Shown here: positions 1 through 54,013 of the stretch, piece by piece
Numbering within the stretch: the first letter of the stretch is position 1
How the letters are laid out: each line of letters opens with the position of its first letter
Assembly (NCBI RefSeq): GCF_016861655.1
Contig: NZ_BOLN01000002.1
Span: 248,001-312,000, forward strand
DNA from: Levilactobacillus lanxiensis
GTDB taxonomy: Bacteria > Bacillota > Bacilli > Lactobacillales > Lactobacillaceae
DNA length: 64,000 nt
Direction: 5' to 3'
Position numbers and translations under genes: made by a program
Notes under the pieces: model-generated
Told to the model about the DNA's origin: nothing
The model's input: the letters and a program-made list of their open reading frames with translations, nothing else
Databases searched by the model: none

Positions 1-15
1 CACCGACCAGCGACC

Positions 16-277
16 CAAACTAGTGTCAGCCGCAGGGCTGGGAAAACTGGACCGGTCGTGGAAGTGACCAGAGGCGCGCCAAGGTGACCAGCTGTGTCGA
101 TGGTCTTAATAGAGCGATTTTCTCTATTTAGAGCATGGGACAACCTTTGAGACCGCTCTTTGGCTCAAAGTTGAGGTGAAAGCCCGCCCTTCGGCTGGAA
201 CCGGCCCCACAGCAGGGCACCTTGAGCGCGCCGCCGGGAACGGACGCGACCAGGCCCATTTACACCAGCCCGGAGGC
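16..277 (+). repeat. Cloverleaf intergenic repeat, copy R1 (long class)
   Basis: Long-class copy of the dispersed repeat. The outer stem pairs about 35-50 with 253-271, an inner stem pairs 72-96 with 208-232, and three hairpin arms lie between. Close relative of the copy at 21341-21608. Its right end lies about ten bases from the TAG stop (minus strand) of the BCCT gene. Confidence 0.85.
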
Positions 278-287
278 AATGAAAAAG

Positions 288-1901
288 CTAGTTAGCGTGG
301 TCTGGTGATAAGATCATTGGGCCGCGGACGGCGCGTGGTAATTCAACCGTAATCCGCCGAACAACAACGGGTTGTGGCACCACCACAGGAGCGACCTTAG
401 GCTTAGCTGCCAGCATATGCCAAATGGAATGCAGCAGCAGGATGCAGACGAACATCAGTGGGAAACCGGCAATCGTTGACACGGTTTGCACGGTCTTGAA
501 GCCCCCGACCATCACAATTCCGAAGGAGAAGATGATGAAGACAACCACCCAAATCATCCGGTTCCAGCGACTAGGTTCCTGCCCGTCATCCAAGTGTAAA
601 CTCGTGAAGGATGACACGATGAAGGCGGACGACGAAATCGTCGTGGCCAGGAAGATAAAACAGGAAATACAGTACAATGCCAGAATGATCATCTTAAATG
701 GCAACGTCGCAATCACCGTGGCAACCACGGCGGCTTGACCCTGCGTGTTTAAGATGTGGACCAAGTTAACGGCCCCGGTCTGTTGAAGCCACAGGGAGTA
801 CCCACCAAAGATGGCGTAGAAACTCATGCACCCCAAGGCCCCGTACGTTAACATGCCGACTAAGACCTGACGAATCGTCCGGCCCTTAGAGATCCGGGCA
901 ATGAACAGCCCCATGACGGGCATGTAAGACAACCACCAGCCCCAGTAGAAAATAGTTTCCTGCTGAGCAGTGGCGTCCCCACCATTAGGTAACGTGTTGG
1001 TCGACATCGCGATAAACTTTTGCGCCATCAACCCAATACTGTTGGTTTCAGAATTTAAAATGTAAACCGTTGGTCCGATAATTAAAATAATGGCTAAGAG
1101 ACCCAGTGCCGTCCAGATGTGGGCGGAACTTAACCGGTTGATCCCACCATTTAACCCGTGGAATACCGTGACGGCAAATAAAATAAACAGGATAATGAAG
1201 AGCTCAATTTTTAGCATCAAGTTGTCTTGAACACCTGTAAGCCGGCTCAGAACTTTGGAAATAATCGGAATTTCCATCCCGACGGATGACCCAATCCCAC
1301 CCATGATTCCAAAGACGACCAGGAAGTCAACGATGTGGCGAGCCACAATCTTGCCCTTACTGTCTCCTTGCAAACTGGTGATAGCGGCACTGACCCGTTG
1401 GACCTTACCGTGCTTCACGTACAGCACGTAAGCAATCGCAATCGTGGCCGGCGCGAACATCATCCACGCCATTGGCCCCCAGTTGAATTGCCCCATCATG
1501 TGCGCTGCGCTGTAGGCGTTGCTCGAGAATGGCTTGAAGCCAAACGCCGGGTGCTGCAGGTAGCGCAGGGGATCAACGATGGACAACATCAAGATACTGG
1601 CATCAATCGCCGTTGCGAAGACCATGCTCCCCCACTGGAAGTTGCTGTAGTGGGGCTTGTCTTCAGGGTCACCTAATTTCACCTTACCAAACTTACCAAA
1701 TGCCAAATACATAAAAAATAAAAAGTTGACCACGTACACCATCATATAAGCCCATGACATGCGAGTATCAATCCAATTCAAGATTGAGCTAAGGGTAGCC
1801 TGTAACTGGCCACCACCTAAAATAAATAGCAATGACGCGAGAATAAATAAAACGATGGTTGGTACGAATACTAACTTATCAATATTTTTACGCGCTAAAA
1901 T
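288..1901 (-). CDS. BCCT-family betaine/choline/carnitine-type transporter
   Basis: Secondary transporter for quaternary ammonium compounds, probably an osmoprotectant, in the membrane. The family signature is clear (FYWGWWLSYMPVMGLFIARI and the following SKGRTIR), with about 12 hydrophobic segments and 537 residues. The first canonical start (TTG at 1832) would delete the first half of TM1 and has no ribosome site. The frame stays open upstream to an ATT at 1901, seven bases after a perfect AGGAGG (1909-1914), and an in-frame TGA at 1914-1916 blocks anything longer. I therefore take ATT as the start; it adds 23 residues including a KNIDKLVFVPT segment that fits the family N-terminus. The exact substrate cannot be told. 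Confidence 0.85.
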   Translation of the reverse strand: MLARKNIDKLVFVPTIVLFILASLLFILGGGQLQATLSSILNWIDTRMSWAYMMVYVVNFLFFMYLAFGKFGKVKLGDPEDKPHYSNFQWGSMVFATAIDASILMLSIVDPLRYLQHPAFGFKPFSSNAYSAAHMMGQFNWGPMAWMMFAPATIAIAYVLYVKHGKVQRVSAAITSLQGDSKGKIVARHIVDFLVVFGIMGGIGSSVGMEIPIISKVLSRLTGVQDNLMLKIELFIILFILFAVTVFHGLNGGINRLSSAHIWTALGLLAIILIIGPTVYILNSETNSIGLMAQKFIAMSTNTLPNGGDATAQQETIFYWGWWLSYMPVMGLFIARISKGRTIRQVLVGMLTYGALGCMSFYAIFGGYSLWLQQTGAVNLVHILNTQGQAAVVATVIATLPFKMIILALYCISCFIFLATTISSSAFIVSSFTSLHLDDGQEPSRWNRMIWVVVFIIFSFGIVMVGGFKTVQTVSTIAGFPLMFVCILLLHSIWHMLAAKPKVAPVVVPQPVVVRRITVELPRAVRGPMILSPDHAN

Positions 1902-1969
1902 AAATAATCCTCCTCATTTGTTTCCTGCGAGCCAAGCTCCCAGCGGATGGTGCCTCAATTAGATTGTAC

Positions 1970-2020
1970 GAAAAAAGCGCGGTTCCAGGGTCGTTATCCG
2001 AGCTACCTGTACAGCGCGCT
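1970..2020 (-). terminator. Terminator-like hairpin in the BCCT leader (possible attenuator)
   Basis: On the minus strand AGCGCG pairs with CGCGCT, with an inner CAGG/CCTG stem, followed by six T. It lies between the putative promoter and the coding region, so it may attenuate the transporter gene. No known riboswitch aptamer or leader ORF was recognised in the about 165-nt leader. Confidence 0.45.
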
Positions 2021-2074
2021 ACCGTTGAATACAAATTGCTTTCGAAAATCTTCTTAAAGCGATATCCAAAGTCT

Positions 2075-2102
2075 ATTATACGCGGTCGAATTAATTAGTA
2101 AA
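2075..2102 (-). promoter_or_regulatory. Putative promoter of the BCCT gene
   Basis: Minus strand TTTACT (-35, 2097-2102), 16-bp spacer, TATAAT (-10, 2075-2080). It would give a leader of about 165 nt containing the hairpin at 1970-2020. Confidence 0.5.
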
Positions 2103-2163
2103 ATCTTGCTGGACGATAAGTTTTTCCTGCGGCAAATAAACCGGTTACATGCCACGTCATGTT

Positions 2164-2201
2164 AGGAATCTAAGAATTTGATTAGAATTTCTAGATTCCT
2201 G
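2164..2201 (-). terminator. Hairpin downstream of the acetyltransferase gene
   Basis: AGGAATCTA and TAGATTCCT form a near-perfect stem ten bases after the maa stop codon. No clear T-tract follows, so it may be a weak terminator or an mRNA-end stabiliser. Confidence 0.4.
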
Positions 2202-2210
2202 AAAATGCGA

Positions 2211-2920: not shown

Positions 2921-3100
2921 GCCTGCGGCTGGCAGGGACCAGTACTCCTCTGGGGCACGGGGCAAGCCAAAGAGCGGTCTTGCCCCTCACTGGGAGCCTC
3001 GCAACCCCCGAGTCCCCCAGACGTCCCGTGCCCTAGGCTGAGAAGAACCCTCAGCCAATGCCACCGACACAGGAGATGGTCCCTGCCAGCCTCCGACTCC
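2921..3100 (-). repeat. Cloverleaf intergenic repeat, copy R2
   Basis: Outer stem GGCTGGCAGGGACCA (2927-2941) pairs with 3077-3091. Read on the minus strand there are three arms: GGCTGAG/CTCAGCC, CTGGG/CCCAG, and GGGGCAAG/CTTGCCCC. Arms 2 and 3 differ in sequence from most copies but keep their pairing. The 3' end points to the maa start. Confidence 0.8.
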
Positions 3101-3264
3101 ACAGATTGTGCGCTGATGTTGACTTGGCGTGAGACCGTCGAAGCAGCGTGTGGTGGGTTCGGCTATTATTGGCGCCTCAATTCTCTACAAGTAGTAGAAA
3201 ATTTTTCTGACTTATTTCATCCCGTAACGTCAAGTCATCTATCCTCAACAAATTTGCTGTAACC

Positions 3265-3636
3265 AAAAAGTCGCCCACCAGCGTTAACTGACAGACGACC
3301 AAAAATACATATAAAATTTCAAGTAAAGACTGTCGTCACACGGCAACCCACACCTAGGAACTAACGCGTAACGGGCTAAACCAGTGTCAGCCGCAGGGGT
3401 GGGAAAACTGGGCCGATCGTGGAAGTGACCAGAGGCGAGCCAAGACTTACAAAAAGTCGCCCGCCAGTGTTAACTGACAGACGACTAAAAATACATATAA
3501 AATTTCAAGTAAAGACTGTCGTCACACGGCAGGCCACACCTAGGAACTAACGCGTAGCGGGCTAAACCAGTGTCAGCCGCAGGGCTGGTGAAAATGGGCT
3601 CAACCGTGGGAGTTACCTTAGCGGGTTCCCCGCTTA
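3265..3636 (+). repeat. 186-bp tandem duplication containing repeat ends
   Basis: The segment beginning AAAAAGTCGCCC at 3265 recurs at 3451 with few mismatches, offset 186 bp, and includes the first bases of a cloverleaf repeat each time. The first unit holds only a truncated copy (R3a, 3376-3444); the second leads into the complete copy R3b. No gene lies in 2820-3785. Confidence 0.85.
3376..3444 (+). repeat. Truncated cloverleaf repeat R3a
   Basis: 5' 69 bases of a long-class copy (CTAAACCAGTGTCAGCCGC onward), cut off after GAGCCAAG, exactly where the duplication unit restarts. Confidence 0.8.
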
Positions 3637-3756
3637 GGTAACTGCTATCTTTGAGACGTGACTTTCGGCTCAAAGTAAGTCTGGAGACCGCTTCTCAGGC
3701 TCCAGACGTGCGCCCACAGCGCCACAGCCCATTTTCACCAGCCCGAAGGCGCTGAC
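3562..3756 (+). repeat. Cloverleaf repeat R3b (short class)
   Basis: Short-class copy. Outer stem GGGCTGGTGAAAATGGGC / GCCCATTTTCACCAGCCC; arm 1 GTTACC/GGTAAC with inner GCGGG/CCCGC; arm 2 CTTTGAG/CTCAAAG; arm 3 GTCTGGAG/CTCCAGAC. Ends GTCAGC and GCTGAC also pair. The 3' end faces the stop of the VOC gene. Confidence 0.88.
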
Positions 3757-3785
3757 AACGACACGTTTAATCAGCCCAGTACGCG

Positions 3786-6160: not shown

Positions 6161-6264
6161 TTTGTTAGGTTAATTAAACTGCGACGTTGACGGTCCTGCA
6201 GGTAGTCCAACTTGCCAATGACAGACAAGCACACCGCGAGGACCAGCCCCCGCAAGTCCACGAA

Positions 6265-6465
6265 CTAAACCAGTATGAGCCGCAGGGCTGGTGAAAATGG
6301 GCTCAGCCGTGGGAGTTGCCTTAGCGGGTTCCCCGCTTAGGCAACTGATATCTTTGAGACTCGGTCTGTGAGGCTCAAAGTAAGTCTGGAGACCGCCTTT
6401 CGGCTCCAGACGTGCGCCCACAGCGTCACGGCCCATTTTCACCAGCCCGGAGGCACTGTGTTTAG
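6265..6465 (+). repeat. Cloverleaf repeat R4 (short class), overlaps codA stop
   Basis: Same architecture as R3b, but arm 1 is GTTGCC/GGCAAC instead of GTTACC/GGTAAC, a compensatory pair. The terminal inverted repeat CTAAACCAGT pairs with ACTGTGTTTAG, whose last bases are the codA stop codon. Confidence 0.88.
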
Positions 6466-7697
6466 AGATCTAAGTGAACTTGCTTAGGGTCGGTCTTGAC
6501 GATGATCTTGCCGTGGTGGATCGAGTAAAGCACTTCCGACCGCTGGTTCAAAGCGTTATAGAAGTTATCATTGTTCATCACAACCAAGTTAGCTGGCTTG
6601 CCAACTTCAATGCCATAGTGGTCGGTCACGTGCATGGCCTTAGCCCCATGGGTCGTCACGAATTGGTAAGAATTCATGATGTCGTCGTAACCCATCATTT
6701 GGGTGACGTGAATCCCCATGTGCAGGGAATCCAGCATGTTACCATCGCCCATTGGATACCAAGGATCCTTGATGTCATCTTCACCGAAGGCCACGTTGAC
6801 GCCGGCTTCGTTCAATTCCTTAACCCGGGTTAAGCCCCGACGCTTCGGATACGTGTCAAACCGACCGCCCAAGTGGGTGTTGATCAATGGGTTAGAAATC
6901 ATGTTGATGTGTGACATTTGTAAGAGCCGCATTAATTTGTAAGCATAAGCGTTGTTGTAAGACCCCATGGCCGTGGTGTGGCTGGCCGTTACTTGGTCAC
7001 CCAAGCCGGTTTCGAGGGCTAAGGTCGCCAACGTTTCCAACCCACGGGAAGCGGGGTCGTCGATTTCGTCACAGTGGGCGTCGACTAACTTGCCGTATTT
7101 TTGCGCTAATTCAACGGCAAAATGTAGGGATTCGACACTGTATTCACGGGTGAATTCGAAATGAGGAATGGCCCCAATCACGTCGACACCCAATTTGGCG
7201 GACTGTTCCATCAATTCCTTACCATGAGGGAACGAGAGAATCCCTTCTTGGGGGAAGGCAACCAATTGGAGTTCGATGAAGTCTTTGACCTCGTCGCGCA
7301 CTTCAATCAGGGCCTTCAAAGCGGTCAGGCTAGGGTCGGTGACGTCCACGTGGGAACGTACGAACTGAATCCCGTTGGCAGCTTGCCGTTCCAAAGCCTG
7401 GCGAGAACGGGTCTTGACGTCTTCAATGCTCAACGTCTTCTTGCGTTCTGACCAGATCCGAATCCCATCGAAGAGAGTCCCGGATTGGTTCCATTCGGGG
7501 TCCCCCGCCGTCATCGTACTGTCCAAATGGACGTGTGGATCAACGAATGGTGGCAATACCAATTTACCCTTGGCATCAATCACCTGTTCATTATCTTTTG
7601 GTTCTAAATGGTCAGCGATGGCGATAAACTTCCCGTCCTCGATGCGAATATCTTGTGGCTGCTTTGCGTTTTCGATGTGCCCTTGTTGAATTAACAT
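6462..7697 (-). CDS. codA: Cytosine deaminase
   Basis: Hydrolyses cytosine to uracil and ammonia for pyrimidine salvage; cytoplasmic metal-dependent amidohydrolase, 411 residues, the family length. Metal ligands are visible in DPHVHLD (His55, His57), in AHCDEIDD (about 207) and in ASHTTAMG. The CodA-specific stretch FGEDDIKDPWYPMGDGNML carries the catalytic Asp. The start follows a normal ribosome site 28 bases after the upstream small membrane protein gene, so the two are probably co-transcribed. No permease (codB) lies next to it. Confidence 0.93.
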   Translation of the reverse strand: MLIQQGHIENAKQPQDIRIEDGKFIAIADHLEPKDNEQVIDAKGKLVLPPFVDPHVHLDSTMTAGDPEWNQSGTLFDGIRIWSERKKTLSIEDVKTRSRQALERQAANGIQFVRSHVDVTDPSLTALKALIEVRDEVKDFIELQLVAFPQEGILSFPHGKELMEQSAKLGVDVIGAIPHFEFTREYSVESLHFAVELAQKYGKLVDAHCDEIDDPASRGLETLATLALETGLGDQVTASHTTAMGSYNNAYAYKLMRLLQMSHINMISNPLINTHLGGRFDTYPKRRGLTRVKELNEAGVNVAFGEDDIKDPWYPMGDGNMLDSLHMGIHVTQMMGYDDIMNSYQFVTTHGAKAMHVTDHYGIEVGKPANLVVMNNDNFYNALNQRSEVLYSIHHGKIIVKTDPKQVHLDL

Positions 7698-8999: not shown

Positions 9000-9250
9000 T
9001 CCGGCAACAGTGAAAATGACTCGTGGTCCAGTCCGTTCCCGGCGGCGGATTCAAGACGCTCTGCTGTGGGGACCGGCGCCAGCCTGAGGAGCGGTCTGGT
9101 GCCTCGCCTTGAAACCTCGCAAAGACCGCGAATTTCCAAGGTCGTCCCGTGCTCTAAACTGAGAAAAGCACTCAGTTAAGACCACCGACACAGCTGCCCG
9201 TCTTGATCCGCCTCTGGTCACTCACAACGACCATAACATTTTCACAGTCG
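9000..9250 (-). repeat. Cloverleaf repeat R5 (long class)
   Basis: Minus-oriented long copy. Outer stem CAGTGAAAATG near 9008-9018 pairs with CATTTTCACAG near 9236-9246; the inner stem includes CTCTGCTGTGGGG and CACAGCTGCCC. 3' end faces thiD. Confidence 0.78.
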
Positions 9251-9379
9251 TGGAGCTAAACATTAGTCGCCGGCCAAATGTGCGGCTGTCACAAATGTAT
9301 CCGCTTTGCTTGGTATTTTTCTTATATAAACCTATACAATACGACAATGTTAAGTTCAAAACCCAAACACCGGTATTGG

Positions 9380-9582
9380 TTTAGCCAATGTCAGTGGAGC
9401 TGGAGGCTGGTGGGGTGGCGAGGCCTGTGTCGGTGGTGTTAGCTGAGGTTCTTTCTCAGCCTACAGCACGGGATGAGCTTTGAGACTTGCGCCCTTCAAG
9501 GCTCAAAGGCAAGATACAAGACCGCTTCTCAGGCTTGTATCGGTCCCCTCAGGCGCTGCCACCCCACCAGCCGCAAGCGCAA
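9380..9582 (+). repeat. Cloverleaf repeat R6
   Basis: Outer stem GGCTGGTGGGGTGGC (9405-9419) pairs perfectly with a segment at about 9557-9572. Arm 3 is GATACAAG/CTTGTATC, different in sequence from other copies but still complementary. Confidence 0.82.
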
Positions 9583-9640: not shown

Positions 9641-9820
9641 CGGATCCGGAGGTGGTCAGATGCGAAGGCTGTGTCGGTGGTGTTGGCTGGGGTTCTTTCT
9701 CAGCCTACAGCACGGGATGACCTTTGAGACTTGCGCCCTTCAAGGCTTAAAGGCAAGCTGGAAGACCGCCCTTTGGCTGGAAGCGGTCCCCACAGCCTGA
9801 AGTGTCTGAACCACCGCAGG
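9641..9820 (+). repeat. Cloverleaf repeat R7
   Basis: Second plus-oriented copy in this gap. Outer pairing GGTGGTCAGA with TCTGAACCACC, inner AGGCTGTG with CACAGCCT, arms as in R6. Its 3' end faces the stop of the 59-residue gene. The 8997-9838 gap holds only repeats R5-R7. Confidence 0.75.
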
Positions 9821-11708: not shown

Positions 11709-11801
11709 TGATGCGTATTTCTATATCCAGGGTAAGCAGAAGTCAAAAGCTGATCCAATGCATGACAGGAATACCACAATTACCCGCCGAATACCCCCAG
11801 G

Positions 11802-11930
11802 AACGTCGAAAATGCGTGGCTAGTATCAGTGACCAGAGGCGGATCAAGTTTCCAAAGCGAGGCGAAAGACCGTCCCTCAGGCTGGAGGCGTTCCCCACAG
11901 CAGGACAACTTGAATCCGCCGCCGGGAACG
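11802..11930 (+). repeat. Broken cloverleaf repeat R8
   Basis: Begins AACGTCGAAAATG and keeps the inner stem (GACCAGAGGCGGATCAAG / CTTGAATCCGCC) and one arm, but arms 1 and 2 are missing. Same start sequence as the next copy 152 bp downstream, suggesting tandem duplication. Confidence 0.72.
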
Positions 11931-11953
11931 AAAACTCGTCATCCCCAAAAAAG

Positions 11954-12183
11954 AACGTCGAAAATGTGTGATGACTGTCAGTGACCAGAGGTGAGCCAAG
12001 GCAGCCAGCTGTGTCGGTGGTGTTGGTCGGGGTTACTTCCCGACCTAGACCACGGGACGACCTTGGAAACTCGCGCACCTCAGCGAGGTTTCAAGGCGAG
12101 GCGAAAGACCGCCAACCGTTCCCCACAGCAGGCTGCCTTGAGCTCACCGCCGGGAACGAAAATCGACCGCACTCATTTTCGAC
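11954..12183 (+). repeat. Cloverleaf repeat R9
   Basis: Complete copy with outer stem GTCGAAAATG (11958-11967) / CATTTTCGAC (12174-12183), unrelated in its first bases to the GGGCTGG-type stems. Three arms present. The 3' end faces the 49-residue membrane protein gene. Confidence 0.8.
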
Positions 12184-12186
12184 CAA

Positions 12187-12910: not shown

Positions 12911-12930
12911 TAAGGAGTTATTGGGATTTT

Positions 12931-13004
12931 GTCGCAATAGCTCAGCTGGATAGAGCAACGGTCTTCTAAACCGTAGGTCGAGGGTTCGAATCTCTCTTGC
13001 GACA
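12931..13004 (+). tRNA. tRNA-Arg (anticodon UCU)
   Basis: 74 nt. Acceptor stem GTCGCAA/TTGCGAC, D arm AGCTCAGCTGGATAGAGC, anticodon stem ACGGT/ACCGT around loop CTTCTAA (anticodon TCT at 12965-12967), T arm GAGGGTTCGAATCTCTC, discriminator A. CCA is not encoded. It decodes AGA and AGG. Confidence 0.96.
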
Positions 13005-13024
13005 TCACAATTAAATGGGTTATC

Positions 13025-13435: not shown

Positions 13436-13470
13436 CAAAAAAACCACTAACCGAAGTCAGTGGTTTTTTA
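13436..13470. terminator. Bidirectional terminator after csp
   Basis: AAAAAACCACT and AGTGGTTTTTT form an A/T-flanked stem downstream of the cold-shock gene. Confidence 0.8.
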
Positions 13471-13496
13471 CTAAGCACGATTTAGGCTAATGTAAA

Positions 13497-13700
13497 TTAG
13501 TCAACTACCGTAACGTTAGCAGCTTGTGGGCCACGGTCGCCTTGTTCTACATCAAGGGATACGTGTTGGCCTTCTTCAAGAGTCTTGAAGCCTTCGCTGT
13601 TGATAGCGGAGAAGTGAACGAAAACGTCTGAGCCGTTTTCCAAAGTGATGAAGCCGTAACCTTTATCAGCGTTGAACCATTTAACAGTACCTTGTTCCAT
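13497..13700 (-). CDS. csp: Cold-shock protein
   Basis: 67-residue single cold-shock domain, an RNA chaperone. RNP1 KGYGFITLE and RNP2 VFVHFSAI are present, as is the typical [10 protein letters not shown] start. ATG 13700 follows GGAGG; the longer frame upstream is 5'-UTR. The stretch from 13701 to about 13850 is a long leader, as is common for csp genes, with a small palindrome (GCGCATAGCGC) near the ribosome site. Confidence 0.95.
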
Positions 13701-13887
13701 AAGAATGAAACCTCCATGCGCATAGCGCAATAATATTTGCATTTGAAAGCTGGGGTAAAAAGGAGCCATTCTTATAAGAACGTCGAGCCTTTACTTCCGA
13801 ACCATAAATACATTAGTCATAGAATAACAGGTATTCCCGATAATAGCAAATGCAAAGTGTCGAAATCGGCAAACTTTTTAGCGACCC

Positions 13888-14502
13888 CTATAAAGCATTC
13901 ACTGTTAACCATGTTTGTGCCGCAAGCACCTCATGCGGCGTCAGCTGGTGAGTTCCGCCCGTTATTTCCATCGTCGTTTCCGCCTGAATCTCGTCAAAAC
14001 TTTTTAAAACTTTTTTTACTGTGGCGACCGTTACCAGCGGATCATGTTCCCCCGCCGACAACCAAGCCCGATAACCAGGTCGCTGGACTGGCAACGCCAC
14101 TGGTAACTGCAACGGATGGAAGAGCAATGCCGCCTGCCCCGGAATTTGCCCCGTTAGGACCCCGTAGGCAGCCATGGCCGCACCATTTGAATAACCGACC
14201 ACCACCAGCCGTTCTGCGTCCCAGCGGTGCTCCTGGCAGACCTGCAGGACCTGCTCGCCCAGCCAGTTGGCCTCTTCATCGATTTGTGCCGGGTTCACGG
14301 GTCCCGCCGCCGTTTGCGAATAATATTGCCGTTGGGCGCCAATCCCCTGCCGACCCGCAATCGTGATCAGTGGGCTCTGTGGGGCCAGTCGCCGGCCAAA
14401 CGTCAACATTTCCTGGTTCGTCCCGCCAGTCCCCTGCAAGAGCAAAAGTGGGGCCGCCGTATTGGCACCGGGCATCGTTTCAATTAAATCCGTTTCCGCC
14501 AT
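13888..14502 (-). CDS. Alpha/beta hydrolase (phospholipase/carboxylesterase-like)
   Basis: 204-residue serine hydrolase. Nucleophile Ser in VGYSNGAAM, oxyanion region LQGTGGTNQEM, Asp in SAGEHDPLV and His in GGTHQLT, all in family order. It resembles small esterases of the YpfH/MhqD kind; substrate unknown. Its start is 11 bases after the stop of the 106-residue gene, so both are probably one operon. Confidence 0.87.
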   Translation of the reverse strand: MAETDLIETMPGANTAAPLLLLQGTGGTNQEMLTFGRRLAPQSPLITIAGRQGIGAQRQYYSQTAAGPVNPAQIDEEANWLGEQVLQVCQEHRWDAERLVVVGYSNGAAMAAYGVLTGQIPGQAALLFHPLQLPVALPVQRPGYRAWLSAGEHDPLVTVATVKKVLKSFDEIQAETTMEITGGTHQLTPHEVLAAQTWLTVNAL

Positions 14503-16289: not shown

Positions 16290-16372
16290 TCAAACCAATT
16301 TCAATTGCCTACAGCTAATCCAATTAAACAATCCGTAAACATTAAGGCATCAAACACAAAAAACTGAATGGA

Positions 16373-16465
16373 TTAAACCCGTGTCAGCCACAGGGGTGGT
16401 GAAAACTGGGTCCATGAGCTCAGTGTCAGTGACCAGAGGCGCGCCAAGGTGCCCGGCTGTGACAG
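16373..16465 (+). repeat. Truncated cloverleaf repeat R10
   Basis: 5' part of a long-class copy, broken off after GCCCGGCTGTG. Flank and start (16353-16380) recur at 16532-16559 before the complete copy R11, with a few differences. Confidence 0.8.
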
Positions 16466-16551
16466 TCCACCGGCTCTGACTCAGCAGTAACTATCTAAAA
16501 CAAATTGAACCAGTACCCCCCACAGAAAACAAACACACAAAGCTGAACGGA

Positions 16552-16839
16552 TTGAACCCGTGTCAGCCGCAGGGCTGGTGAAAATGGGCCACGTGGTCAG
16601 TGTCAGTGACCAGAGGCGCGCCAAGGTGCCCGGCTGTGTCGATGGTCTTAGCTGAGGTTTCTCACTCAGCTTAGCCCATGGGACAACCTTTGAGACCGCC
16701 CCTCAGGCTCAAAGTTGAGGTGGAAGCCCGCTTCTCAGGCTGGAACCGGCCCCACAGCAGGGCACCTTGAGCGCGCCGCCGGGAACGACCAGCACCGCGT
16801 TCCGGCCCAGTTTTCACCAGCCCGGAGGCGAAGTTTAAC
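16552..16839 (+). repeat. Cloverleaf repeat R11 (long class, complete)
   Basis: Best example of the long class. Outer stem GGGCTGGTGAAAATGGGCC / GGCCCAGTTTTCACCAGCCC; inner stem GGCGCGCCAAGGTGCCC / GGGCACCTTGAGCGCGCC; arm 1 AGCTGAG/CTCAGCT; arm 2 CTTTGAG/CTCAAAG. The 3' end lies 30 bases before the start of the OppA-like gene. Confidence 0.9.
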
Positions 16840-16868
16840 CCAAGACTATACATAACGGAGTGGTAAAC

Positions 16869-21010: not shown

Positions 21011-21225
21011 TGGTTTGTGTGAGTTGGTGTCTGCGGCTGCCAGGATTCCGCCTGCTGTGGGGACCGCCTTCAGCCAAAGAACGGGCTTCCGGCTCGACTT
21101 TGAGCCGCGAAGCCCACCCGCCTCAAAGTTCGTCCCGTGCTGTAAGGCCGAGAAAAACACTCGGTCTAACACCACCGACACAGCCGGCTCCATCCTGTCC
21201 TCCTCCGACACCAACGGCAACAACA
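21011..21225 (-). repeat. Cloverleaf repeat R12
   Basis: Outer stem GTTGGTGTC (21023-21031) / GACACCAAC (21207-21215); arms on the minus strand include GACCGAG/CTCGGCC and CTTTGAGGC/GCGGCTCAAAG. It ends just upstream of the lplA ribosome site, so lplA is transcribed through it or from inside it. Confidence 0.8.
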
Positions 21226-21340
21226 CACCGTTCTGTTTATTTTTGTTTACCATTTCTAGCGACGTTAATTGCTATCGAGACACGTCAATTCCTTAAACAA
21301 CGCCTCACTAACAATAATCAATAAGTCGCTCGCTTCCGGG

Positions 21341-21608
21341 CTAAACCAGTGTGAGCCGCAAGGCTGGGAAAACTGGGCCGGTCGTGGGAGTGACCAGAGG
21401 CGAGCCAAGGTGCCCGGCTGTGTCGATGGTCTTAATAGAGCGATTTTCTCTATTTAGAGCATGGGACAACCTTTGAGACCGAACTTTGGCTCAAAGTTGA
21501 GGTGGAAGCCCGCCCTTTGGCTGAAACCGACCCCACAGCAGGGCTCCTTGAGCTCACCGGCGGGAACGGACGCGACCAGGCCCAGTTTTCACCAGCCCGG
21601 AGGCGCGG
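21341..21608 (+). repeat. Cloverleaf repeat R13 (long class)
   Basis: Complete long copy, very similar to R1, including arm 1 with the unusual AATAGAG/CTCTATT stem. Head-to-head with R12; 3' end toward the GcvH-like gene. Confidence 0.88.
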
Positions 21609-21749
21609 TCCACGTAGTTCAGCCCAAGCGAGCACTGATTGAAATTATTTTTAGTGTAGCATGCACCCTCAGCGTGAGCAAGTTATTGTCAGCGGTTACA
21701 AGCAAAGGGTATACTAGAAATTAACAACGACATTAGGGAGGAATTTACG

Positions 21750-25982: not shown

Positions 25983-26065
25983 AACACGATAAATCCTTTC
26001 TCTCTCATACCTCAAGTATGCATCATCATTTCGTTACTGGGATGTTGAACATAGTCTGTATCTTC

Positions 26066-26111
26066 CGTTCCCGACGGTGGGGTCAAGGTGCCCCACCTCT
26101 GGTCACTGACA
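26066..26111 (-). repeat. Remnant of a cloverleaf repeat, R14
   Basis: Only the inner-stem halves remain (CGTTCCCGACGGTGGGGTCA, CCCCACCTCTGGTCACTGAC); all arms are gone. Compare with R16. Confidence 0.65.
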
Positions 26112-26663: not shown

Positions 26664-26858
26664 CTAAACACTAGTATGAGCCGTGAGGTTGGCGAAAATT
26701 GGCTCAGCCGTGGGATTCTGCGAGAAATTTTCTCGCAGAATGGCGACTTTGAAACTCGTTCTTTGAGGTTCAAAGCGAGCTCGAAGACCGCTTCTCAGGC
26801 TTCGGGCGTCCTCCCCACCGCGTTCCGGCCAATTTTCGCCGACCGGTAAGGCGCGGTT
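26664..26858 (+). repeat. Cloverleaf repeat R15 (short class)
   Basis: Outer stem GGTTGGCGAAAATTGGC / GCCAATTTTCGCCGACC; arm 1 ATTCTGCGAG/CTCGCAGAAT; arm 2 CTTTGAAAC/GGTTCAAAG; arm 3 GCTCGAAG/CTTCGGGC. Each stem differs from R3b at paired positions. The 3' end is 12 bases from the metI stop. Confidence 0.88.
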
Positions 26859-26869
26859 ATCCACCATTT

Positions 26870-27553
26870 CTAAGCGGTGTGGTCAACTTTACGGGCCCAG
26901 AGGTCACCGAGAAGCTGGATAGCAAACACAATCACCAGAATGATCAACATCGCCAGAATCGTGACGTCACTTTCAAAGCGGCTGTACCCGACGTTGATGG
27001 CCAAGTTCCCTAAGCCCCCACCACCGATGGCACCGGCCATGGCAGTCAGGTCGATCAGACTGATCAACGTAAGAACGGACGAGCGGACAATATCCGGCAG
27101 CCCTTCTCTGAGGTAGACGCGGAAAATAATTGCGATGGGACCGGAACCAACTGATTCAGCGGCTTCAATCACGCCACGGTCAACTTCGGACAGGGCGTTT
27201 TGAATCTGCCGCGCGTAGAATGGCGCAGACCCAATCACCAGTGGCACGATGGCTGCGGTGGTCCCGATAGCGGTCCCCACAATCAACCGGGTCAGTGGTG
27301 CGATGACGGCCAGTAAAATAACGAATGGAATTGACCGACACAGGTTAACGATCTTATCGAGAATGTTATAAACAATCCGATTTTCCAGGATACCGCCGGG
27401 TTGAGTCACAATCAAGCCAACCCCAATGGCCATCCCCAGAATCCCCGCCACAACGGCGGTAAAGAATGTCATGTACAGTGTTTCGCCGGTGGCCTGGAGA
27501 AAATCACTCTTCATGGTCACAGCATTAGGAAAATATTTGGCAAACCAAGTCAT
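26870..27553 (-). CDS. metI: Methionine ABC transporter permease
   Basis: 227 residues with about five to six membrane helices. The EAA-type loop for contact with MetN is EVDRGVIEAAESVGSGPIAI; IGGGGLGNLAI is characteristic of MetI. It starts immediately after the metN stop codon. Substrate class (methionine/S-compounds) follows from metQ and the upstream T-box. Confidence 0.93.
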   Translation of the reverse strand: MTWFAKYFPNAVTMKSDFLQATGETLYMTFFTAVVAGILGMAIGVGLIVTQPGGILENRIVYNILDKIVNLCRSIPFVILLAVIAPLTRLIVGTAIGTTAAIVPLVIGSAPFYARQIQNALSEVDRGVIEAAESVGSGPIAIIFRVYLREGLPDIVRSSVLTLISLIDLTAMAGAIGGGGLGNLAINVGYSRFESDVTILAMLIILVIVFAIQLLGDLWARKVDHTA

Positions 27554-28627: not shown

Positions 28628-28691
28628 TCTCCTTACTCGCCAATGCCGGCAGTTTCTTCATTAATATGTTTAAACTAATTTTCAATTCGCC

Positions 28692-28942
28692 TTCCGGACG
28701 GTTTAAAATGGTGGCTGATTTGCCGTTCCCGGCGGCGGGCTCAAGGTGTCCTGCTGTGGGGAACGGTTCCAGACTGAGAACCGGTCTTTCACCTCGCCTG
28801 AAAGCCTGGAAAAATCCCAGTCTCCCAGGTCGTCCCGTGCTCTAAACTGAGAAAATCACTCAGTTAAGACCACCGACACAGCTGACCACCTTGGGCCGCC
28901 TCTGGTCACTCACATTGACCACCATTTTAAACTGTCTTCCAG
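28692..28942 (-). repeat. Cloverleaf repeat R16, inside the met operon
   Basis: Outer stem GTTTAAAATGGTGG (28701-28714) / CCACCATTTTAAAC (28919-28932), inner CCTTGGGCC/GGGCTCAAGG, arms with AACTGAG/CTCAGTT. It separates metQ from metN by more than 400 bp. The 3' end faces the metN start. Confidence 0.85.
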
Positions 28943-29011
28943 GATGATAGTCAGTTAACCAATTAGTAACTTCGGTGTCCTCACCATCACTATATCCTTT
29001 CAATAACTTAA

Positions 29012-31423: not shown

Positions 31424-31505
31424 ATTTGAACCAATCTCAGCCGTGAGGTCAGTCAAAATGGTGACTTTGAGACTCGCTTCTTAGGGGCTCAAAGCAAGTC
31501 TGAGT
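31424..31505 (+). repeat. Broken cloverleaf repeat R17a
   Basis: Start (TTTGAACCAATCTCAGCC) and arm 2 (CTTTGAGAC/GGCTCAAAG) remain; arm 1, arm 3 and the 3' end are missing. A complete copy follows about 150 bp downstream. Confidence 0.72.
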
Positions 31506-31575
31506 CAAAATTTCTGCAAATGGCCTAATCAACCAATTCAACCAAAACTATCATCAAAAGATCACTTGCGCCGGT

Positions 31576-31777
31576 CTAAATCAGTGTGAGCCGCAAGGTT
31601 GGTGAAAATGGACTCAGCCGTGGGAATTCCCTTAGCAACGGTCTTGGTTGCTTAGGGAATTGATATCTTTGAGACTCGTTTCTTAGAGGCTCAAAGTAAG
31701 CTCAGAGACCGTCCTTTGGCTCTGGGCGTTCGCCCACAGCGTTCCGGTCCATTTTCACCGGCCTGGAGGCGCGGTTA
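31576..31777 (+). repeat. Cloverleaf repeat R17b (short class)
   Basis: Outer stem AGGTTGGTGAAAATGGAC / GTCCATTTTCACCGGCCT; arm 1 AATTCCC/GGGAATT; arm 3 GCTCAGAG/CTCTGGGC. 3' end faces the oppA stop at 31806. Confidence 0.88.
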
Positions 31778-31805
31778 CCACACCATTTAACCTAGTAGCC
31801 AGCGA

Positions 31806-48331: not shown

Positions 48332-48438
48332 GTGTGCGAAACCCCTTTCATACTTGCTTACCTCTATTATAAGCTAAATTCAAAAAGCCACCGAACCCAA
48401 AATGGATTCGATGGCTAAAGTTTTTATATTATAATAGT

Positions 48439-48535
48439 TCGTTTCCGCCAGCGGGCTCAAGAATCCCTGCTGTGGGAAACAACTCCCACACAGCTAGCCA
48501 TCTTGGCCCACGTCTGGTCGTTGAACCATTTCAAC
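48439..48535 (-). repeat. Broken cloverleaf repeat R18a
   Basis: Only inner-stem halves remain (GCGGGCTCAAGA with TCTTGGCCC; GCTGTG with CACAGC); all arms are lost. Head-to-head with R18b. Confidence 0.75.
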
Positions 48536-48566
48536 AGACGACTAAATCTATGGTTTTCTTTACGCA

Positions 48567-48846
48567 CTAAACCAGTCTCAGCCGCAGAGATGGTGAAAAT
48601 GAACCTGGTTGGCCCAGCGTTAGTGACCAGAGGCGGGTCAAAATTCCCGGCTGTGTCGATGGTCTTAGCTGAGCGGTTTTCTCAGTTTAGACCATGGGGC
48701 AACCTTTGAGACCGTACCTCAGGCTCAAAGTTGAGGTGGAATCCCGTTTTCCAGGCTGGAACCGACCCCACAGCAGGGTGTTTTGAACCCACCGCCGGGA
48801 ACGAACAGCACCTCCACCGAATCAGTTTTCACCATCCCGGAGGCGT
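48567..48846 (+). repeat. Cloverleaf repeat R18b (long class)
   Basis: Outer stem AGATGGTGAAAATGA / TCAGTTTTCACCATC; inner stem with CAAAATT in place of CAAGGTG and GTTTTG in place of ACCTTG, so pairing is kept. Three arms. The 3' end is 16 bases from the CMD stop. Confidence 0.85.
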
Positions 48847-48861
48847 CAATAAAAAGCTAGT

Positions 48862-49182
48862 TTAATCCTTGAAGATTTCCTTAGCGATATTGAAGGCAGA
48901 CCAAGCTTTTGGCCAACCAACATAGAAGGACAGGTGCGTAATCACTTCTGCAATTTCGTCCTTAGTAATGCCGTTACCCTTCCCAATCTTCAGATGTGCG
49001 GGTAATTGTTCAAAATTCCCAGCGGAAATCAGGGCGGAAATTGTGATCAGACTGCGTTGATGGGCGGATAGTTTATCCTCACGTGACCAGACTTGCCCAA
49101 ATAAAACGTCGTCATTCAGTTCGGCAAACTTGGGGGCAAATTCACCTAAGTTATCCCGACCAGCTGTTTGTTTCTTTGTCAT
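48862..49182 (-). CDS. Carboxymuconolactone decarboxylase-like protein
   Basis: 106 residues, AhpD-like helical fold (SREDKLSAHQRSLITISALI, ITKDEIAEVITHLSFYVGWP). It lacks the Cys-x-x-Cys of AhpD peroxidases, so it is of the gamma-CMD type with unknown substrate. 12 bases after the cupin gene; part of the MerR-cupin-CMD operon. Confidence 0.87.
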   Translation of the reverse strand: MTKKQTAGRDNLGEFAPKFAELNDDVLFGQVWSREDKLSAHQRSLITISALISAGNFEQLPAHLKIGKGNGITKDEIAEVITHLSFYVGWPKAWSAFNIAKEIFKD

Positions 49183-51053: not shown

Positions 51054-51105
51054 GGTTTTAAAATTTACGGGAACCGGATGATTCCCACCAAAAGAGGCTT
51101 TTATC

Positions 51106-52560
51106 ATGACAGATACCAATGGCAAACCTTTTAGCCGCGTGTGGCTAATGGTGACGCTAATGTTCGGGACATTTTGTACGGCCCTGACCACCAACATGCT
51201 GGTCACCGCGTACCCCACGTTAATGACCCGCTTCGATATTTCTAGTGCCACCGTTCAGTGGCTGACGACCGGCTTTCTGCTGGTCATGGGGATTATGATT
51301 CCCATCAGTGCCTGGCTGATCAACAACTTTAGTTTACGCATCATTTACCTGACCGCCCTGAGCTTTTTCCTGGCCGGACTGGTTATCAGCTATACCGCTA
51401 ACAGCTTTAACCTGATTTTTCTAGGTCGGCTGATTCAGGCTATCGGTGTGGGAATTACCTTCCCGACCATTCAAACCGTTCTGCTCGTCACCTTTCCCGC
51501 CGATAAACGGGGAACGATGATGGGGCTGGGCGGTGTCGTGATTGGCCTCGCACCAGCCTTAGGGCCGACCGTCTCCGGTTGGATTCTCGACAATGCCAGT
51601 TGGCGCGACCTGTTCGGCGTCATGATTCCACCGGTCATCTTGGTATTGATCCTGTCGCTGATCTTCGTGCGCCCAGTCATCCCCGTGAAAAAATCCCCCA
51701 TCGACCTGCTGGCGATTTTATTGTCGACGATTGGATTTGGGAGCCTGCTCTACGGCTTTTCCGAAGTCGGTGAAAATGGCTGGGGCTCGACCAGCGTCAT
51801 TGCTGGTATCCTGATTGGCCTCTTCTTCATTGGACTTTTCGCCCGTCACGAGTGGCCGCAAGCCCATCCTTTTCTCAATGTCCGCCTGTTAAAAATTCCG
51901 TCCTTTACCGTGGCTTCCTTTATCACGGCCCTTTCCAACACCGCCATGATTGGGATTCAAGTGGTCTTACCCATGTACCTGCAACAGGTGCGCGGCCTGA
52001 CGCCCTTCCACTCTGGGCTAATGATTCTCCCCGGGGCCTTGGTCTATGGTCTGGTCAGCCTGTTGAGTGGCCACCTTTACGACCAAATGGGTGGCCGGCG
52101 ACTGGCTTTGGTCGGCACGTTCCTATTAACACTGGGAACCCTGCCCTTTGCCTTTCTCACTCGTTCGACGCCGTACAGCTACATCATCTGTGAATACACG
52201 ATTCTAATGATTGGGGTCGCCATTGTCACGATGCCGCTGACCGCCGCTAGTTCGATTGACTTGCGCGGCCTGCAGCTGAGTCACGGAACCGCCGTCAACA
52301 GTACCATGCGGCAGGTCATGACCTCGATGGGGACCGCCATTCTCGGCAGCGTTCTCACCAACGTCACGACCCAACACACGCCGGCGCATGCTTTACTGAC
52401 CAGCGCACCGCTTGCGTACCAGAACCAGGCCTACGACGCGGCCATGACCGGTTTCCACGCTGCCTTCCTGGTGGCCACGGCCTTTGGCATCATCGATTTC
52501 ATCTTTGCCTGCTTCGTTAAACGACAGGTCCAGGATCAAGAACAGGAGGCCACCGCATGA
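51106..52560 (+). CDS. DHA2-family efflux MFS transporter
   Basis: 484 residues, about 14 helices. Motifs FDISSATVQWLTTGFLLVMG, GRLIQAIGVGITFP and FPADKRGTMMG typical of DHA2 pumps in lactobacilli that pair with DUF4811 proteins. Overlaps the DUF4811 gene by four bases. Controlled by the divergent TetR gene, so likely inducible by its substrate. Confidence 0.92.
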   Translation: MTDTNGKPFSRVWLMVTLMFGTFCTALTTNMLVTAYPTLMTRFDISSATVQWLTTGFLLVMGIMIPISAWLINNFSLRIIYLTALSFFLAGLVISYTANSFNLIFLGRLIQAIGVGITFPTIQTVLLVTFPADKRGTMMGLGGVVIGLAPALGPTVSGWILDNASWRDLFGVMIPPVILVLILSLIFVRPVIPVKKSPIDLLAILLSTIGFGSLLYGFSEVGENGWGSTSVIAGILIGLFFIGLFARHEWPQAHPFLNVRLLKIPSFTVASFITALSNTAMIGIQVVLPMYLQQVRGLTPFHSGLMILPGALVYGLVSLLSGHLYDQMGGRRLALVGTFLLTLGTLPFAFLTRSTPYSYIICEYTILMIGVAIVTMPLTAASSIDLRGLQLSHGTAVNSTMRQVMTSMGTAILGSVLTNVTTQHTPAHALLTSAPLAYQNQAYDAAMTGFHAAFLVATAFGIIDFIFACFVKRQVQDQEQEATA

Positions 52561-53306
52561 TTTTAATTTTACTTTTACTCGGGATTCTGTTGTTCATCGG
52601 CGGCTTCCTGCTACTACCCACGAAACGCCAACGGTTCGTCGGTGGTGGCCTGGGGTTCATCGTTCTGGTCGGTGCCGCTACCTTAATGATTGGCAACGAC
52701 AACTGGCACTGGGGGATGCACCAAGTAACGACGACGCGAACAACCAACATCGCGTCCATTTCACCCTCTAAGCAAGTTAACCTCTTAGTTTATCAGCCAA
52801 TCCGGCAAGCCAAAAAGGAACGGGTTTACGTTTACCGGCTGCCGAATCAGCAAAAACAGCGGCACACCGCGGCCAGCGTAAAGACCCATAATCAACTTAA
52901 TTATCGCGACGTGTCGCAAGCTAAGTTGCAAACCAAAACCACGCGCTGGCACTATAATAACGCGTTGTGGCGGGGATTATTCTCCTGGACCGGCCAACAC
53001 CAAACGCTGATCAAGCGCCAAAACACCTTCATTCTGCCACACAGCTGGACCACGCTCAGTGTGCGGCAGGCCAAGTGGTTGTCACAAACGGTCGCCAAGC
53101 AGGAAGCAACGGTCAAGTCTAAGACAACGAAGGCCGTCACCGCGGCTGTCATTGCGGCCAAAGAAGCTCAACCTGACCTGACACAACAACAGCTCAAACA
53201 GATTCAACAGAAAGCCACGCGCACTGCTCAACAACAAGCGACACAACAAGCTGCCAACGGCTTAGCCCGCCTGTTAAAGCAAGCGCAGCAACAACCAGCA
53301 AAATAG
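52557..53306 (+). CDS. DUF4811 partner protein of the DHA2 pump
   Basis: 249 residues. Two N-terminal helices (about 1-20 and 29-45) anchor an extracellular beta-rich region and a long Gln/Ala/Lys-rich coiled C-terminus (QQQLKQIQQKATRTAQQQAT). ATG overlaps the pump stop (ATGA). DUF4811 proteins regularly follow such pumps, perhaps as an accessory subunit, though no function is established to my knowledge. Confidence 0.85.
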   Translation: MILILLLLGILLFIGGFLLLPTKRQRFVGGGLGFIVLVGAATLMIGNDNWHWGMHQVTTTRTTNIASISPSKQVNLLVYQPIRQAKKERVYVYRLPNQQKQRHTAASVKTHNQLNYRDVSQAKLQTKTTRWHYNNALWRGLFSWTGQHQTLIKRQNTFILPHSWTTLSVRQAKWLSQTVAKQEATVKSKTTKAVTAAVIAAKEAQPDLTQQQLKQIQQKATRTAQQQATQQAANGLARLLKQAQQQPAK

Positions 53307-53307
53307 A

Positions 53308-53530
53308 AGAAACCAGAAAACTAACGTCGTCAGCCACCTCCGGCTTCCAGGAATTCCGGCTGCTATGGGGCCCGGCTCCAGCCTGAGGACCGGTCTTCCA
53401 CCTCGCTTTGAAGGCGCGAAAACCACACGTCTCCAAAGTCGGCCCATGCTGTAAGCTGGCAACCCACCAGCTAACACCATCGACACAGCTACCTCCATCC
53501 CTGGAGCCTCCGGTTACGTTGGTTTTCTTC
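53308..53530 (-). repeat. Cloverleaf repeat R19
   Basis: Outer stem GAAAACTAACGT (53316-53327) / ACGTTGGTTTTC (53516-53527), next GGCTTCCAGG / CCTGGAGCC, then three arms. Begins right after the DUF4811 stop. Confidence 0.82.
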
Positions 53531-53703
53531 CTGCTTAAATTGTTCTAGTTACCCTAATTTTTTCAGGTTGAACTCTCAAATTTACGTATTTTGTTCACCT
53601 CTGACGGTACACCTGGATTATTGCTATTTGATTAACTACTACCACCGGGCAACGACGTTGTTGTCTCACGGGTTATGCGTTAAATCAATATTAGCTACAA
53701 TGA

Positions 53704-53998
53704 CGATGAAAATGAGTCATTTCTGCACACGTGGACGCCTCTGGTCCCCATGTCAGTGACCAGAGGCGAATCAAGGTAACCAGCTGTGTCGATGGCGTTA
53801 GCTGAGGTTTCCCACTCAGCTTAGGCCATGGGACGACCTTTGAGACCGCACTTCAGGCTCAAAGTCGAGGTGGAAGCCCGGTTCTCAGGCTGCAACCGGC
53901 CCCACAGCAGGGCACCTTGAATTCGCCGCCGGGAACGAACAGTTACGATAATTTCATCGCCCACAGCGTTCCGACCCATTTTCACCGGCCCGGAGGCG
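53704..53998 (+). repeat. Cloverleaf repeat R20 (composite end)
   Basis: Long-class copy with outer stem GATGAAAAT / ATAATTTCATC, followed directly by the 3' end of a short-class copy (GCCCACAGCGTTCCG to CCGGAGGCG). This may be one element inserted in or recombined with another. Head-to-head with R19. Confidence 0.72.
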
Positions 53999-54013
53999 AA
54001 AACAAAGACATAA

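What the first reader, a model, noticed from the sequence alone, without database searches (positions are those of the whole stretch)
1..54000. A dispersed family of large three-armed (cloverleaf) intergenic repeats
About two dozen copies (R1-R20 plus fragments) fill nearly every larger gap from 1 to 54 kb. Intact copies share one layout: an outer stem, an often long inner stem, then three hairpins with apical CCG/GGC-type ends. There are two size classes, about 190-200 nt (R3b, R4, R15, R17b) and 250-290 nt (R1, R11, R13, R18b). No copy holds a credible gene. I do not recognise this as a named repeat family.
Basis: seen in the sequence. Interest (0 to 1): 0.88.

Follow-up and report, generated by a model that had tools for sequence, protein, structure and literature searches.

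The report
Hidden cloverleaf repeats of lactic bacteria
About one base in twenty of the sampled genome of this lactic-acid bacterium belongs to one family of folded, gene-free DNA elements that also occurs in related bacteria but not in the RNA library we searched; most copies have the same one of their two ends against a gene, and the family likely spread by being copied through a folded single strand.

Summary
The window is Levilactobacillus; profiles find 24 copies or fragments in it and 148 in 564 kb of its genome (5.1% of bases; reversed control 0), roughly 700 cores per genome by extrapolation. Short, long and core-only copies share one core: 24 cores of two genera pair in 92.7% of cells, 34 of 44 pairs change on both sides, slid controls 36-44%. 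A covariance model finds it in 111 of 397 genomes of the family, in probable Streptococcus and one further family. Rfam has no match. Two unusual signatures: the right end lies within 60 nt of a gene in 39 of 51 isolated copies, the left in 1 of 51; and the first ~50 nt outside the ends form an inverted repeat peculiar to each site (0 of 5000 permutations), though not in two other genera. Related species hold short or long forms in the same gap (13 of 46 clusters). I read it as a mobile family likely copied through a folded single strand; the enzyme is unknown and transcription untested.

The parts
15..293 (+). long element (core 89-215)
   Evidence: nhmmer 295 bits; CM R1 E 8.6e-25
2945..3075 (-). 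core-only element
   Evidence: CM R1 E 5.5e-22
3362..3445 (+). left-end fragment of a long element; overlaps the first of two tandem 150-nt copies (3264-3413, 3450-3599)
   Evidence: nhmmer; direct repeat D19
3544..3775 (+). short element (core 3601-3722)
6249..6477 (+). short element (core 6304-6426); same gap holds the long form in L. wangkuiensis and L. mulengensis
6252..6261 (+). left flank GCAAGTCCAC: inverted copy of the deaminase 3' end
   Evidence: sequence; flank test
6475..6484 (+). right flank GTGAACTTGC: inside the deaminase gene (6462-7697, minus strand), the presumed original arm
   Evidence: sequence
9000..9259 (-). long element (core 9061-9196)
9422..9555 (+). core-only element
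9666..9798 (+). core-only element
11795..11933 (+). two fragments of a long element
   Evidence: weak core 11824-11903
11960..12185 (+). long element (core 12006-12131)
16359..16463 (+). left part of a decayed long element
16536..16853 (+). long element (core 16631-16760); short form in the same gap of two related species
21052..21186 (-). core-only element
21322..21616 (+). long element (core 21415-21541) with the highest inverted-flank score of the 51 tested (41)
26039..26093 (-). fragment; near-full long form in both related species
26666..26872 (+). short element, diverged subtype (core 26705-26823)
28667..28961 (-). long element (core 28751-28884); the same kind of outer arms encloses a short core in L. 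mulengensis and L. cerevisiae
31459..31502 (+). fragment of a short element
31561..31794 (+). short element (core 31615-31742)
48437..48476 (-). fragment of a long element
48554..48864 (+). long element (core 48648-48776); inverted short form in L. wangkuiensis
53360..53491 (-). core-only element
53669..54016 (+). long element (core 53781-53910); short form in L. wangkuiensis

Best explanation
These are copies of one large family of non-coding elements with a conserved three-hairpin core, and they likely spread by being copied through a folded single strand that is inserted with its right end against a gene, the site-specific left arm being probably made by fold-back copying of the 20-50 bases beside the right end. 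Shown: the common core, its pairing and its covariation; the number of copies; the polarity towards genes; the inverted repeat outside the element that differs from site to site in Levilactobacillus and in one further family; the lack of a target-site duplication; and the presence of short or long inner parts in the same gap of related species. Inferred: that the family is mobile and not just inherited and converted in place; that the moving form is single-stranded (DNA more likely than RNA, because six genomes rich in copies have no reverse transcriptase of the common kind); that the right end is joined first and the left arm is copied by snap-back priming from the outer stem; and that the exchange of inner parts is gene conversion between copies. 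The enzyme that moves the element was not found.
For: Core structure: 24 cores of Levilactobacillus and Furfurilactobacillus, 92.7% of cells paired, 34 of 44 pairs changed on both sides, slid controls 36-44%, 0 of 500 shuffles reach the pairing; 66 cores (65 distinct rows) including probable Streptococcus, 95.8% and 43 of 44, slid 32.5-45.1% (alignment fitted to the model). Abundance, and copies up to 97% alike. Polarity: right end within 60 nt of an ORF in 39 of 51 isolated elements, left in 1 of 51; 12 of 13 vs 0 of 13 and 10 of 11 vs 0 of 11 in two related species; right gene nearer for short 30 of 35, long 19 of 20, core-only 11 of 13, another genus 21 of 26, another family 22 of 27, probable Streptococcus 34 of 42 (44 loci in 25 flank clusters, so not all independent). 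Inverted flanks: score 28 or more in 10 of 51 own pairs vs 9 of 2550 swapped, 0 of 5000 permutations, direct-repeat control 0 of 51; confined to the first 50 nt (29 vs 1.74 expected 8-mer matches, 35 elements); repeated in two related species (1 and 0 of 2000) and in the further family (0 of 5000). In all 12 pairs scoring 24 or more with a coding arm it is the right arm (about 8 distinct loci; 2 more pairs had none). No target-site duplication for lengths 3 to 12. Short/long difference in the same gap in 13 of 46 clusters (my count), with site-specific outer arms kept at the sites inspected. Strand-specific folding, short form: 59 G.U vs 24 A.C cells in pairs found from both strands.
Against: No clean new insertion against an empty site was caught: the apparent empty sites inspected keep remnants of element ends or cannot be resolved. 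Inverted flanks were not seen in two other genera with many copies (765 of 2000 and 1643 of 2000 permutations reached the observed sum), though element ends there were set less exactly; with 300-nt flanks the whole-window score differs little (24.2 own vs 22.1 swapped). In the further family, which is AT-rich, direct repeats also score high (25.9 own) and no swapped direct control was run. Polarity is absent in one genus (5 of 9). Strand bias is absent or reversed for the long form (9 vs 11 in common pairs, 27 vs 42 in pairs from the minus strand; 21 vs 16). No enzyme was linked to it: the two Y1 transposase loci of the genome do not resemble the element, and its one reverse-transcriptase domain was not linked to it; other transposases were not searched.
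Confidence: 0.5

Rival explanations
1. A structured RNA with a cellular job (processing site, regulator or RNA scaffold), transcribed from the plus strand, which was multiplied by duplication and is kept in place by selection on the RNA fold.
For: Conserved unpaired bases and covariation on both sides of most pairs; a common G.U pair (A2 columns 64/90, 13 of 23 rows with letters); G.U over A.C in the short form and in the fitted set A3 (136 vs 22); in probable Streptococcus 26 of 42 copies are sense between co-directional genes, 8 antisense, 8 convergent, 0 divergent.
Against: No orientation bias to genes in Levilactobacillus (38 co-directional vs 51 opposite of 131 intergenic hits); hundreds of copies in some genomes and no match in 286 of 397 genomes of the family; short and long forms alternate in a gap. 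It does not explain the site-specific inverted flanks.
Confidence: 0.22
2. An ordinary non-autonomous DNA transposon (MITE) moved by a DDE transposase that recognises the terminal GGGYTAAAC/GTTTARCCC repeats.
For: Sharp left end and short terminal inverted repeats; size and dispersed, intergenic position.
Against: No target-site duplication; arms outside the element differ at each site; orientation to the nearer gene; a core structure conserved across families while the outer stems are not.
Confidence: 0.12
3. Not mobile at present: old, vertically inherited palindromes that keep themselves symmetrical and grow outwards by template switching at the replication fork, and homogenise by gene conversion.
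For: All 12 window clusters that could be compared hold an element in both related species; outer arms of one site change together (GGATGG forms at 48.5 kb, TTTAAA forms at 28.7 kb); inverted flanks limited to 50 nt.
Against: Template switching should work on either strand and give no polarity; presence in scattered genera with 1 to at least 150 copies per genome; at the deaminase gap L. cerevisiae and several other species show, by eye, neither element nor inverted arm.
Confidence: 0.16

Closest known systems
bcr1 repeats of the Bacillus cereus group
   Same: 150-170 nt dispersed, gene-free, folded repeat (table rows seen in PMC2267715; other details recalled)
   Different: bcr1 is listed there with 12 to 31 copies; here about 700 by extrapolation and a multi-branched core shared by three families; target duplication, recalled for bcr1, is not found here
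BOX, RUP and SPRITE repeats of pneumococci
   Same: Small interspersed folded repeats of Lactobacillales, probably parasitic (abstract and passages of PMC3049150)
   Different: [quoted passage not shown] here no duplication, Levilactobacillus cores of 50-66% GC and inverted flanks; the recalled BOX-PCR primer is absent from 16 loci checked
REP/BIME with RAYT (Y1) transposases
   Same: Hairpins with a bulge in intergenic DNA, high copy number (recalled)
   Different: 130-290 nt with six core helices, not 20-40 nt single hairpins; the genome's two Y1 loci show no likeness to the element
Correia elements / ERIC / other bacterial MITEs
   Same: Terminal inverted repeats around a folded body (recalled; Correia in passages of PMC3049150)
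   Different: No target duplication, polar to genes, site-specific inverted arms
SINEs with twin priming, fold-back inverted duplications
   Same: Works like them in that a 3' end folds back and copies its own flank (analogy; recalled, and abstract of PMC10622511 in the listing)
   Different: Bacterial; no reverse transcriptase of the common kind in six copy-rich genomes

Membership tests
Rfam families (release 15) | covariance-model score above gathering | tested here: not met
   Window: only cspA and tRNA; 18 loci of other genomes: only one T-box, outside the element; two copies at E up to 10: only weak, implausible hits
MITE | target-site duplication | tested here: not met
   35 copies with both ends clear; own match not above shuffled for 3 to 12 nt; 0.329 vs 0.25 at 2 nt
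MITE | terminal inverted repeats | tested here: met
   GGGYTAAAC / GTTTARCCC, 35 of 68 copies with 7 or more of 9 at both ends
MITE | related autonomous insertion sequence | tested here: inconclusive
   Only Y1 loci checked; other IS families not searched
REP/RAYT | short single palindrome next to or mobilised by a RAYT gene | tested here: not met
   Element is 130-290 nt with several helices; the two Y1 loci lack it at E up to 10
BOX/RUP/SPRITE | sequence and composition of those families | tested here: inconclusive
   Only the recalled BOX-PCR primer was compared; composition per PMC3049150 passages differs for RUP and SPRITE
Retroelement (RNA template) | reverse transcriptase in carrier genomes | tested here: not met
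   No PF00078 match in G332, G308, G157, G060, G150, G069, each with 124-150 scored copies; one match in the window's genome
Riboswitch or cis-regulatory leader | fixed position and orientation upstream of a gene class | tested here: not met
   38 co-directional, 51 opposite, 21 divergent, 21 convergent contexts; gene classes not tested
Structured RNA | compensatory base changes in the helices | tested here: met
   Each of six helices has pairs with changes on both sides
Structured RNA | transcription of the folded strand | not testable with these tools
   no expression data

The most novel reading that the evidence does not exclude
A new kind of bacterial mobile element: a protein-free, strand-specific folded element, shared by three families of Lactobacillales, that inserts with one end facing a coding sequence and writes an inverted copy of its target next to its other end (target-site inversion instead of target-site duplication), and whose inner cassette is swapped in place afterwards.
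Probability: 0.4. Interest if true: 0.93.

Novelty: new variant of a known kind. Interest (0 to 1): 0.85.

Why it matters
A single unnamed family takes up 5% of the sampled sequence of this genome and occurs in more than a quarter of the sampled genomes of a food-relevant bacterial family (111 of 397), yet Rfam does not list it. Its two insertion signatures, polarity to genes and an inverted copy of the target, are features I know from no described small bacterial repeat, and they make a hidden transposition mechanism directly testable. The repeats occupy many of the larger intergenic gaps (12 of 19 in the window), so they matter for annotating promoters, terminators and small RNAs in lactobacilli.

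Tried and rejected
RAYT/REP origin: two Y1_Tnp genes found; their 3.4-kb loci, 89% alike and IS200/IS605-like in my reading, show no element similarity at E up to 10. Direct target duplications: none. Plasmid or phage carriage: no blastn match for the long element in plasmids or phages or for the short one in plasmids. BOX identity: recalled primer absent in 16 loci, 13 of probable Streptococcus and 3 of the further family. Reverse transcriptase partner: not consistent with distribution. RNA versus DNA by G.U/A.C counts: supportive for the short form only; the strong ratio in A3 comes from an alignment fitted on the plus strand. 'Always sense in Streptococcus': true for the first 12 loci, false in the larger set (26 sense, 8 antisense, 8 convergent). 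Clean empty sites: the candidates inspected kept end remnants or were unclear. Literature: the searches gave no paper on this family in their listings; only open-licence PMC papers were searched. Scripts (after most of its output) and 91 stopped with errors; redid the work.

Dropped rows: one search used 51 isolated copies with both ends recognised (68 with both ends, under slightly different filters); one search used 51 isolated of 66 with termini; one search kept 39 of 66 and 27 of 31 extended hits; one search kept 35; the profiles used 30 short and 28 of 30 long copies (two partial long copies left out); one search placed 136 of 148 hits; one search had genes on both sides for 42 of 44 loci and for 27 of 29.
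Full report
WHAT IT IS. The window is a stretch of a Levilactobacillus chromosome. Its deaminase (6462-7697, minus) is 100% alike in protein to that of L. wangkuiensis and 99% to two others, while the DNA of the region is mostly 88-95% alike to L. wangkuiensis, so the species is near but probably not the same. The window is G000:C2:248001-312000 of a 3.03-Mb genome in 24 contigs. Levilactobacillus is in Lactobacillaceae, Lactobacillales.

CHECK OF THE OBSERVATION. Blastn of a short copy (window 6262-6462) and a long copy (16553-16832) against the own genome gave mostly full-length matches of 87-97% and 83-91% (a few partial ones up to 94%), with only 40 of 274 and 40 of 410 candidates scored. 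Profiles from 30 short and 28 long copies found 148 hits in 564 kb (window, 100 kb of contig 1 and twenty 20-kb stretches of nine contigs), 28,691 bases or 5.1%; reversed sequence gave none. The covariance model found 134 cores in the same sequence; outside the window that is 116 in 500 kb, or roughly 700 per genome by extrapolation. In the window there are 24 hits in 13 clusters, all before 54,016. They lie in 12 of 19 gaps of 250 nt or more and in none of 36 smaller gaps.

ANATOMY. Short copies (66 aligned) have an outer stem of about 18 pairs, a closing stem, and three hairpins; long copies (45 aligned) have an additional inner stem around a homologous core. A third class is the core alone. 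The core runs CTGTG ... CACAG: hairpin A (variable in sequence, nearly always paired), a GGGA/UCCC helix that encloses hairpins B and C, and in B and C the shared motif GAGAC...GGCU. On 24 cores of Levilactobacillus and Furfurilactobacillus 92.7% of cells pair, 34 of 44 pairs have changes on both sides, and sliding the partners by 1-3 columns drops pairing to 36-44%. On 66 cores from 11 genus labels of the family, probable Streptococcus and one further family, aligned to the model, the figures are 95.8% and 43 of 44. The conserved ends are GGGYTAAACC.GTGTCAGCCGCAGGG on the left and, less sharply, CCCGGAGGCGC...GTTTARCCC on the right.

WHERE IT OCCURS. Model R1: 111 of 397 sampled genomes of the family, 11 of 40 genera, 25 of them in the window's genus (8 candidates scored per genome; genomes without a match are listed only in part). 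With up to 150 scored, copy-rich genomes of four other genera reach 124-150. 65 and 49 or 50 cores in 200 kb were counted in two of them. By name, 20 of 65 scanned loci of about 11 kb hold a core: Levilactobacillus species, one uncultured Lactobacillus, and Furfurilactobacillus rossiae and milii; L. brevis ATCC 14869 had no match to the long copy by blastn. In the order, three genomes outside the family had a single R1 hit each (15 of 295 genomes positive). Model R2 then found 23 genomes of one further genus among 398 of the class, with 1-17 copies in the eleven checked, and 41 in a genome of a third family. The further genus is probably Streptococcus: I infer this from a purD-element-purE-purK-purB order and kinship, not from a name. 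Among 398 genomes of the phylum only the own genome and one of that genus matched (strict filters).

HOW IT SITS. In Levilactobacillus the transcription direction of neighbours does not matter (38 co-directional, 51 opposite, 21 divergent, 21 convergent; 5 inside ORFs). But the right end of the element lies against a gene: 39 of 51 isolated copies within 60 nt (median 10), the left end 1 of 51 (median 366); 12 of 13 vs 0 and 10 of 11 vs 0 in two related species. The gene at the right shows its 3' end or its start about equally (22 and 17 within 60 nt). The same polarity holds for core-only copies (11 of 13), for a copy-rich genome of another genus (21 of 26, sign p 0.0025), for the third family (22 of 27) and for probable Streptococcus (34 of 42, of 44 loci in 25 flank clusters); it is not seen in one genus (5 of 9).

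THE INVERTED FLANKS. Outside the conserved ends, the left flank often is an inverted, decayed copy of the right flank of the same site. Own pairs score 20.6 on average, swapped pairs 14.7; 10 of 51 own pairs reach 28 against 9 of 2550 swapped; 0 of 5000 permutations; direct repeats reach 28 in 0 of 51. The matches stop at 50 nt: 29 near-diagonal 8-mers in the first 50 nt against 1.74 expected, 5 against about 9 in the next 250; over the whole 300 nt the score gain is small (24.2 vs 22.1, 35 elements). In the two related species 1 and 0 of 2000 permutations reach the observed sum. Of 14 pairs scoring 24 or more there, 12 have a coding arm, and it is the right one in all 12 (about 8 distinct loci). 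At the deaminase gap the gene's own end (GTGAACTTGC, 6475-6484) is mirrored as GCAAGTCCAC (6252-6261); L. cerevisiae and other species printed without an element show, by eye, no such mirror. In the third family each copy has its own outer stem (own 31.3, swapped 20.1, 0 of 5000), but that genome is AT-rich, direct repeats score 25.9 there and had no swapped control. In two other genera the test was negative.

EXCHANGE IN PLACE. Over about 250 kb compared between the window's genome, L. wangkuiensis and L. mulengensis, I count 13 of 46 clusters in which one species has the short and another the long form in the same gap, and 2 with a changed orientation (six clusters could be compared with one species only). 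At 28.7 kb outer arms peculiar to that site enclose a long core in two species and a short core in two others. At the purD-purE gap three element subtypes and tandem pairs occur among related genomes (by eye, output cut), and at least nine genomes have only a short spacer there.

MECHANISM. The polarity relative to the element's own orientation, and the coding right arm, fit a strand-specific process: one strand of the folded element is joined at its right end to the target, and its free left end, held next to the right end by the outer stem, primes copying of the neighbouring 20-50 bases before synthesis returns to the chromosome. This is inference. A DNA intermediate is favoured over RNA because six copy-rich genomes lack the common reverse-transcriptase domain. 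G.U pairs exceed A.C mismatches in the short form (59 vs 24; columns 20 vs 7) but not in the long form (9 vs 11; 27 vs 42 in pairs from the minus strand; 21 vs 16), so strand-specific folding is supported only in part. No enzyme is identified.

COMPARISON. It resembles small interspersed repeats such as bcr1, BOX or Correia elements in size, position and abundance, but fails the target-duplication test of MITEs, has no Rfam match and shows two insertion signatures that I know from none of them. Of papers I saw the abstract and passages of PMC3049150 and passages of PMC2267715, otherwise search listings.

Noticed in passing
window 13437-13931 (-): Rfam cspA thermoregulator match (95.4 bits); nearby a tRNA-Arg at 12930-13006.
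   Followed up: no
window 3264-3413 and 3450-3599: 150-nt tandem duplication, 93% alike, carrying the left end of an element; extra left-end fragments 130-290 nt upstream of full copies recur at about ten places of the genome.
   Followed up: partly
L261, L276-L305 (purD-purE gap of probable Streptococcus): Three subtypes of the element, some in tandem or hybrid, occupy the same purine-operon gap in related species.
   Followed up: partly
L376, L377, L380, L385, L375: A sub-family with outer stem GATATTTCCC/GGGAAATATC (one arm changed in L375), preceded by a small GCAAGCCGGAGGCTTGC hairpin, in several probable Streptococcus genomes.
   Followed up: no
G000:C4:76966-77523 (L361): The only reverse-transcriptase domain found in the window's genome, in a 360-aa frame; type not determined.
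   Followed up: no
between window 60189 and 60264, in L. wangkuiensis: About 18 kb extra DNA in G001:C4 against a 75-nt gap in the window.
   Followed up: no
window 56773-57072 and 58196-58495: Two neighbouring stretches 69% alike over 300 nt, within two adjacent minus-strand ORFs.
   Followed up: no
L. brevis strain CD0817 (L087): A strain named L. brevis with 41 blastn matches to the long copy (40 of 127 candidates scored), unlike ATCC 14869 with none; its deaminase is 98% like the query, so its species name may be doubtful.
   Followed up: no
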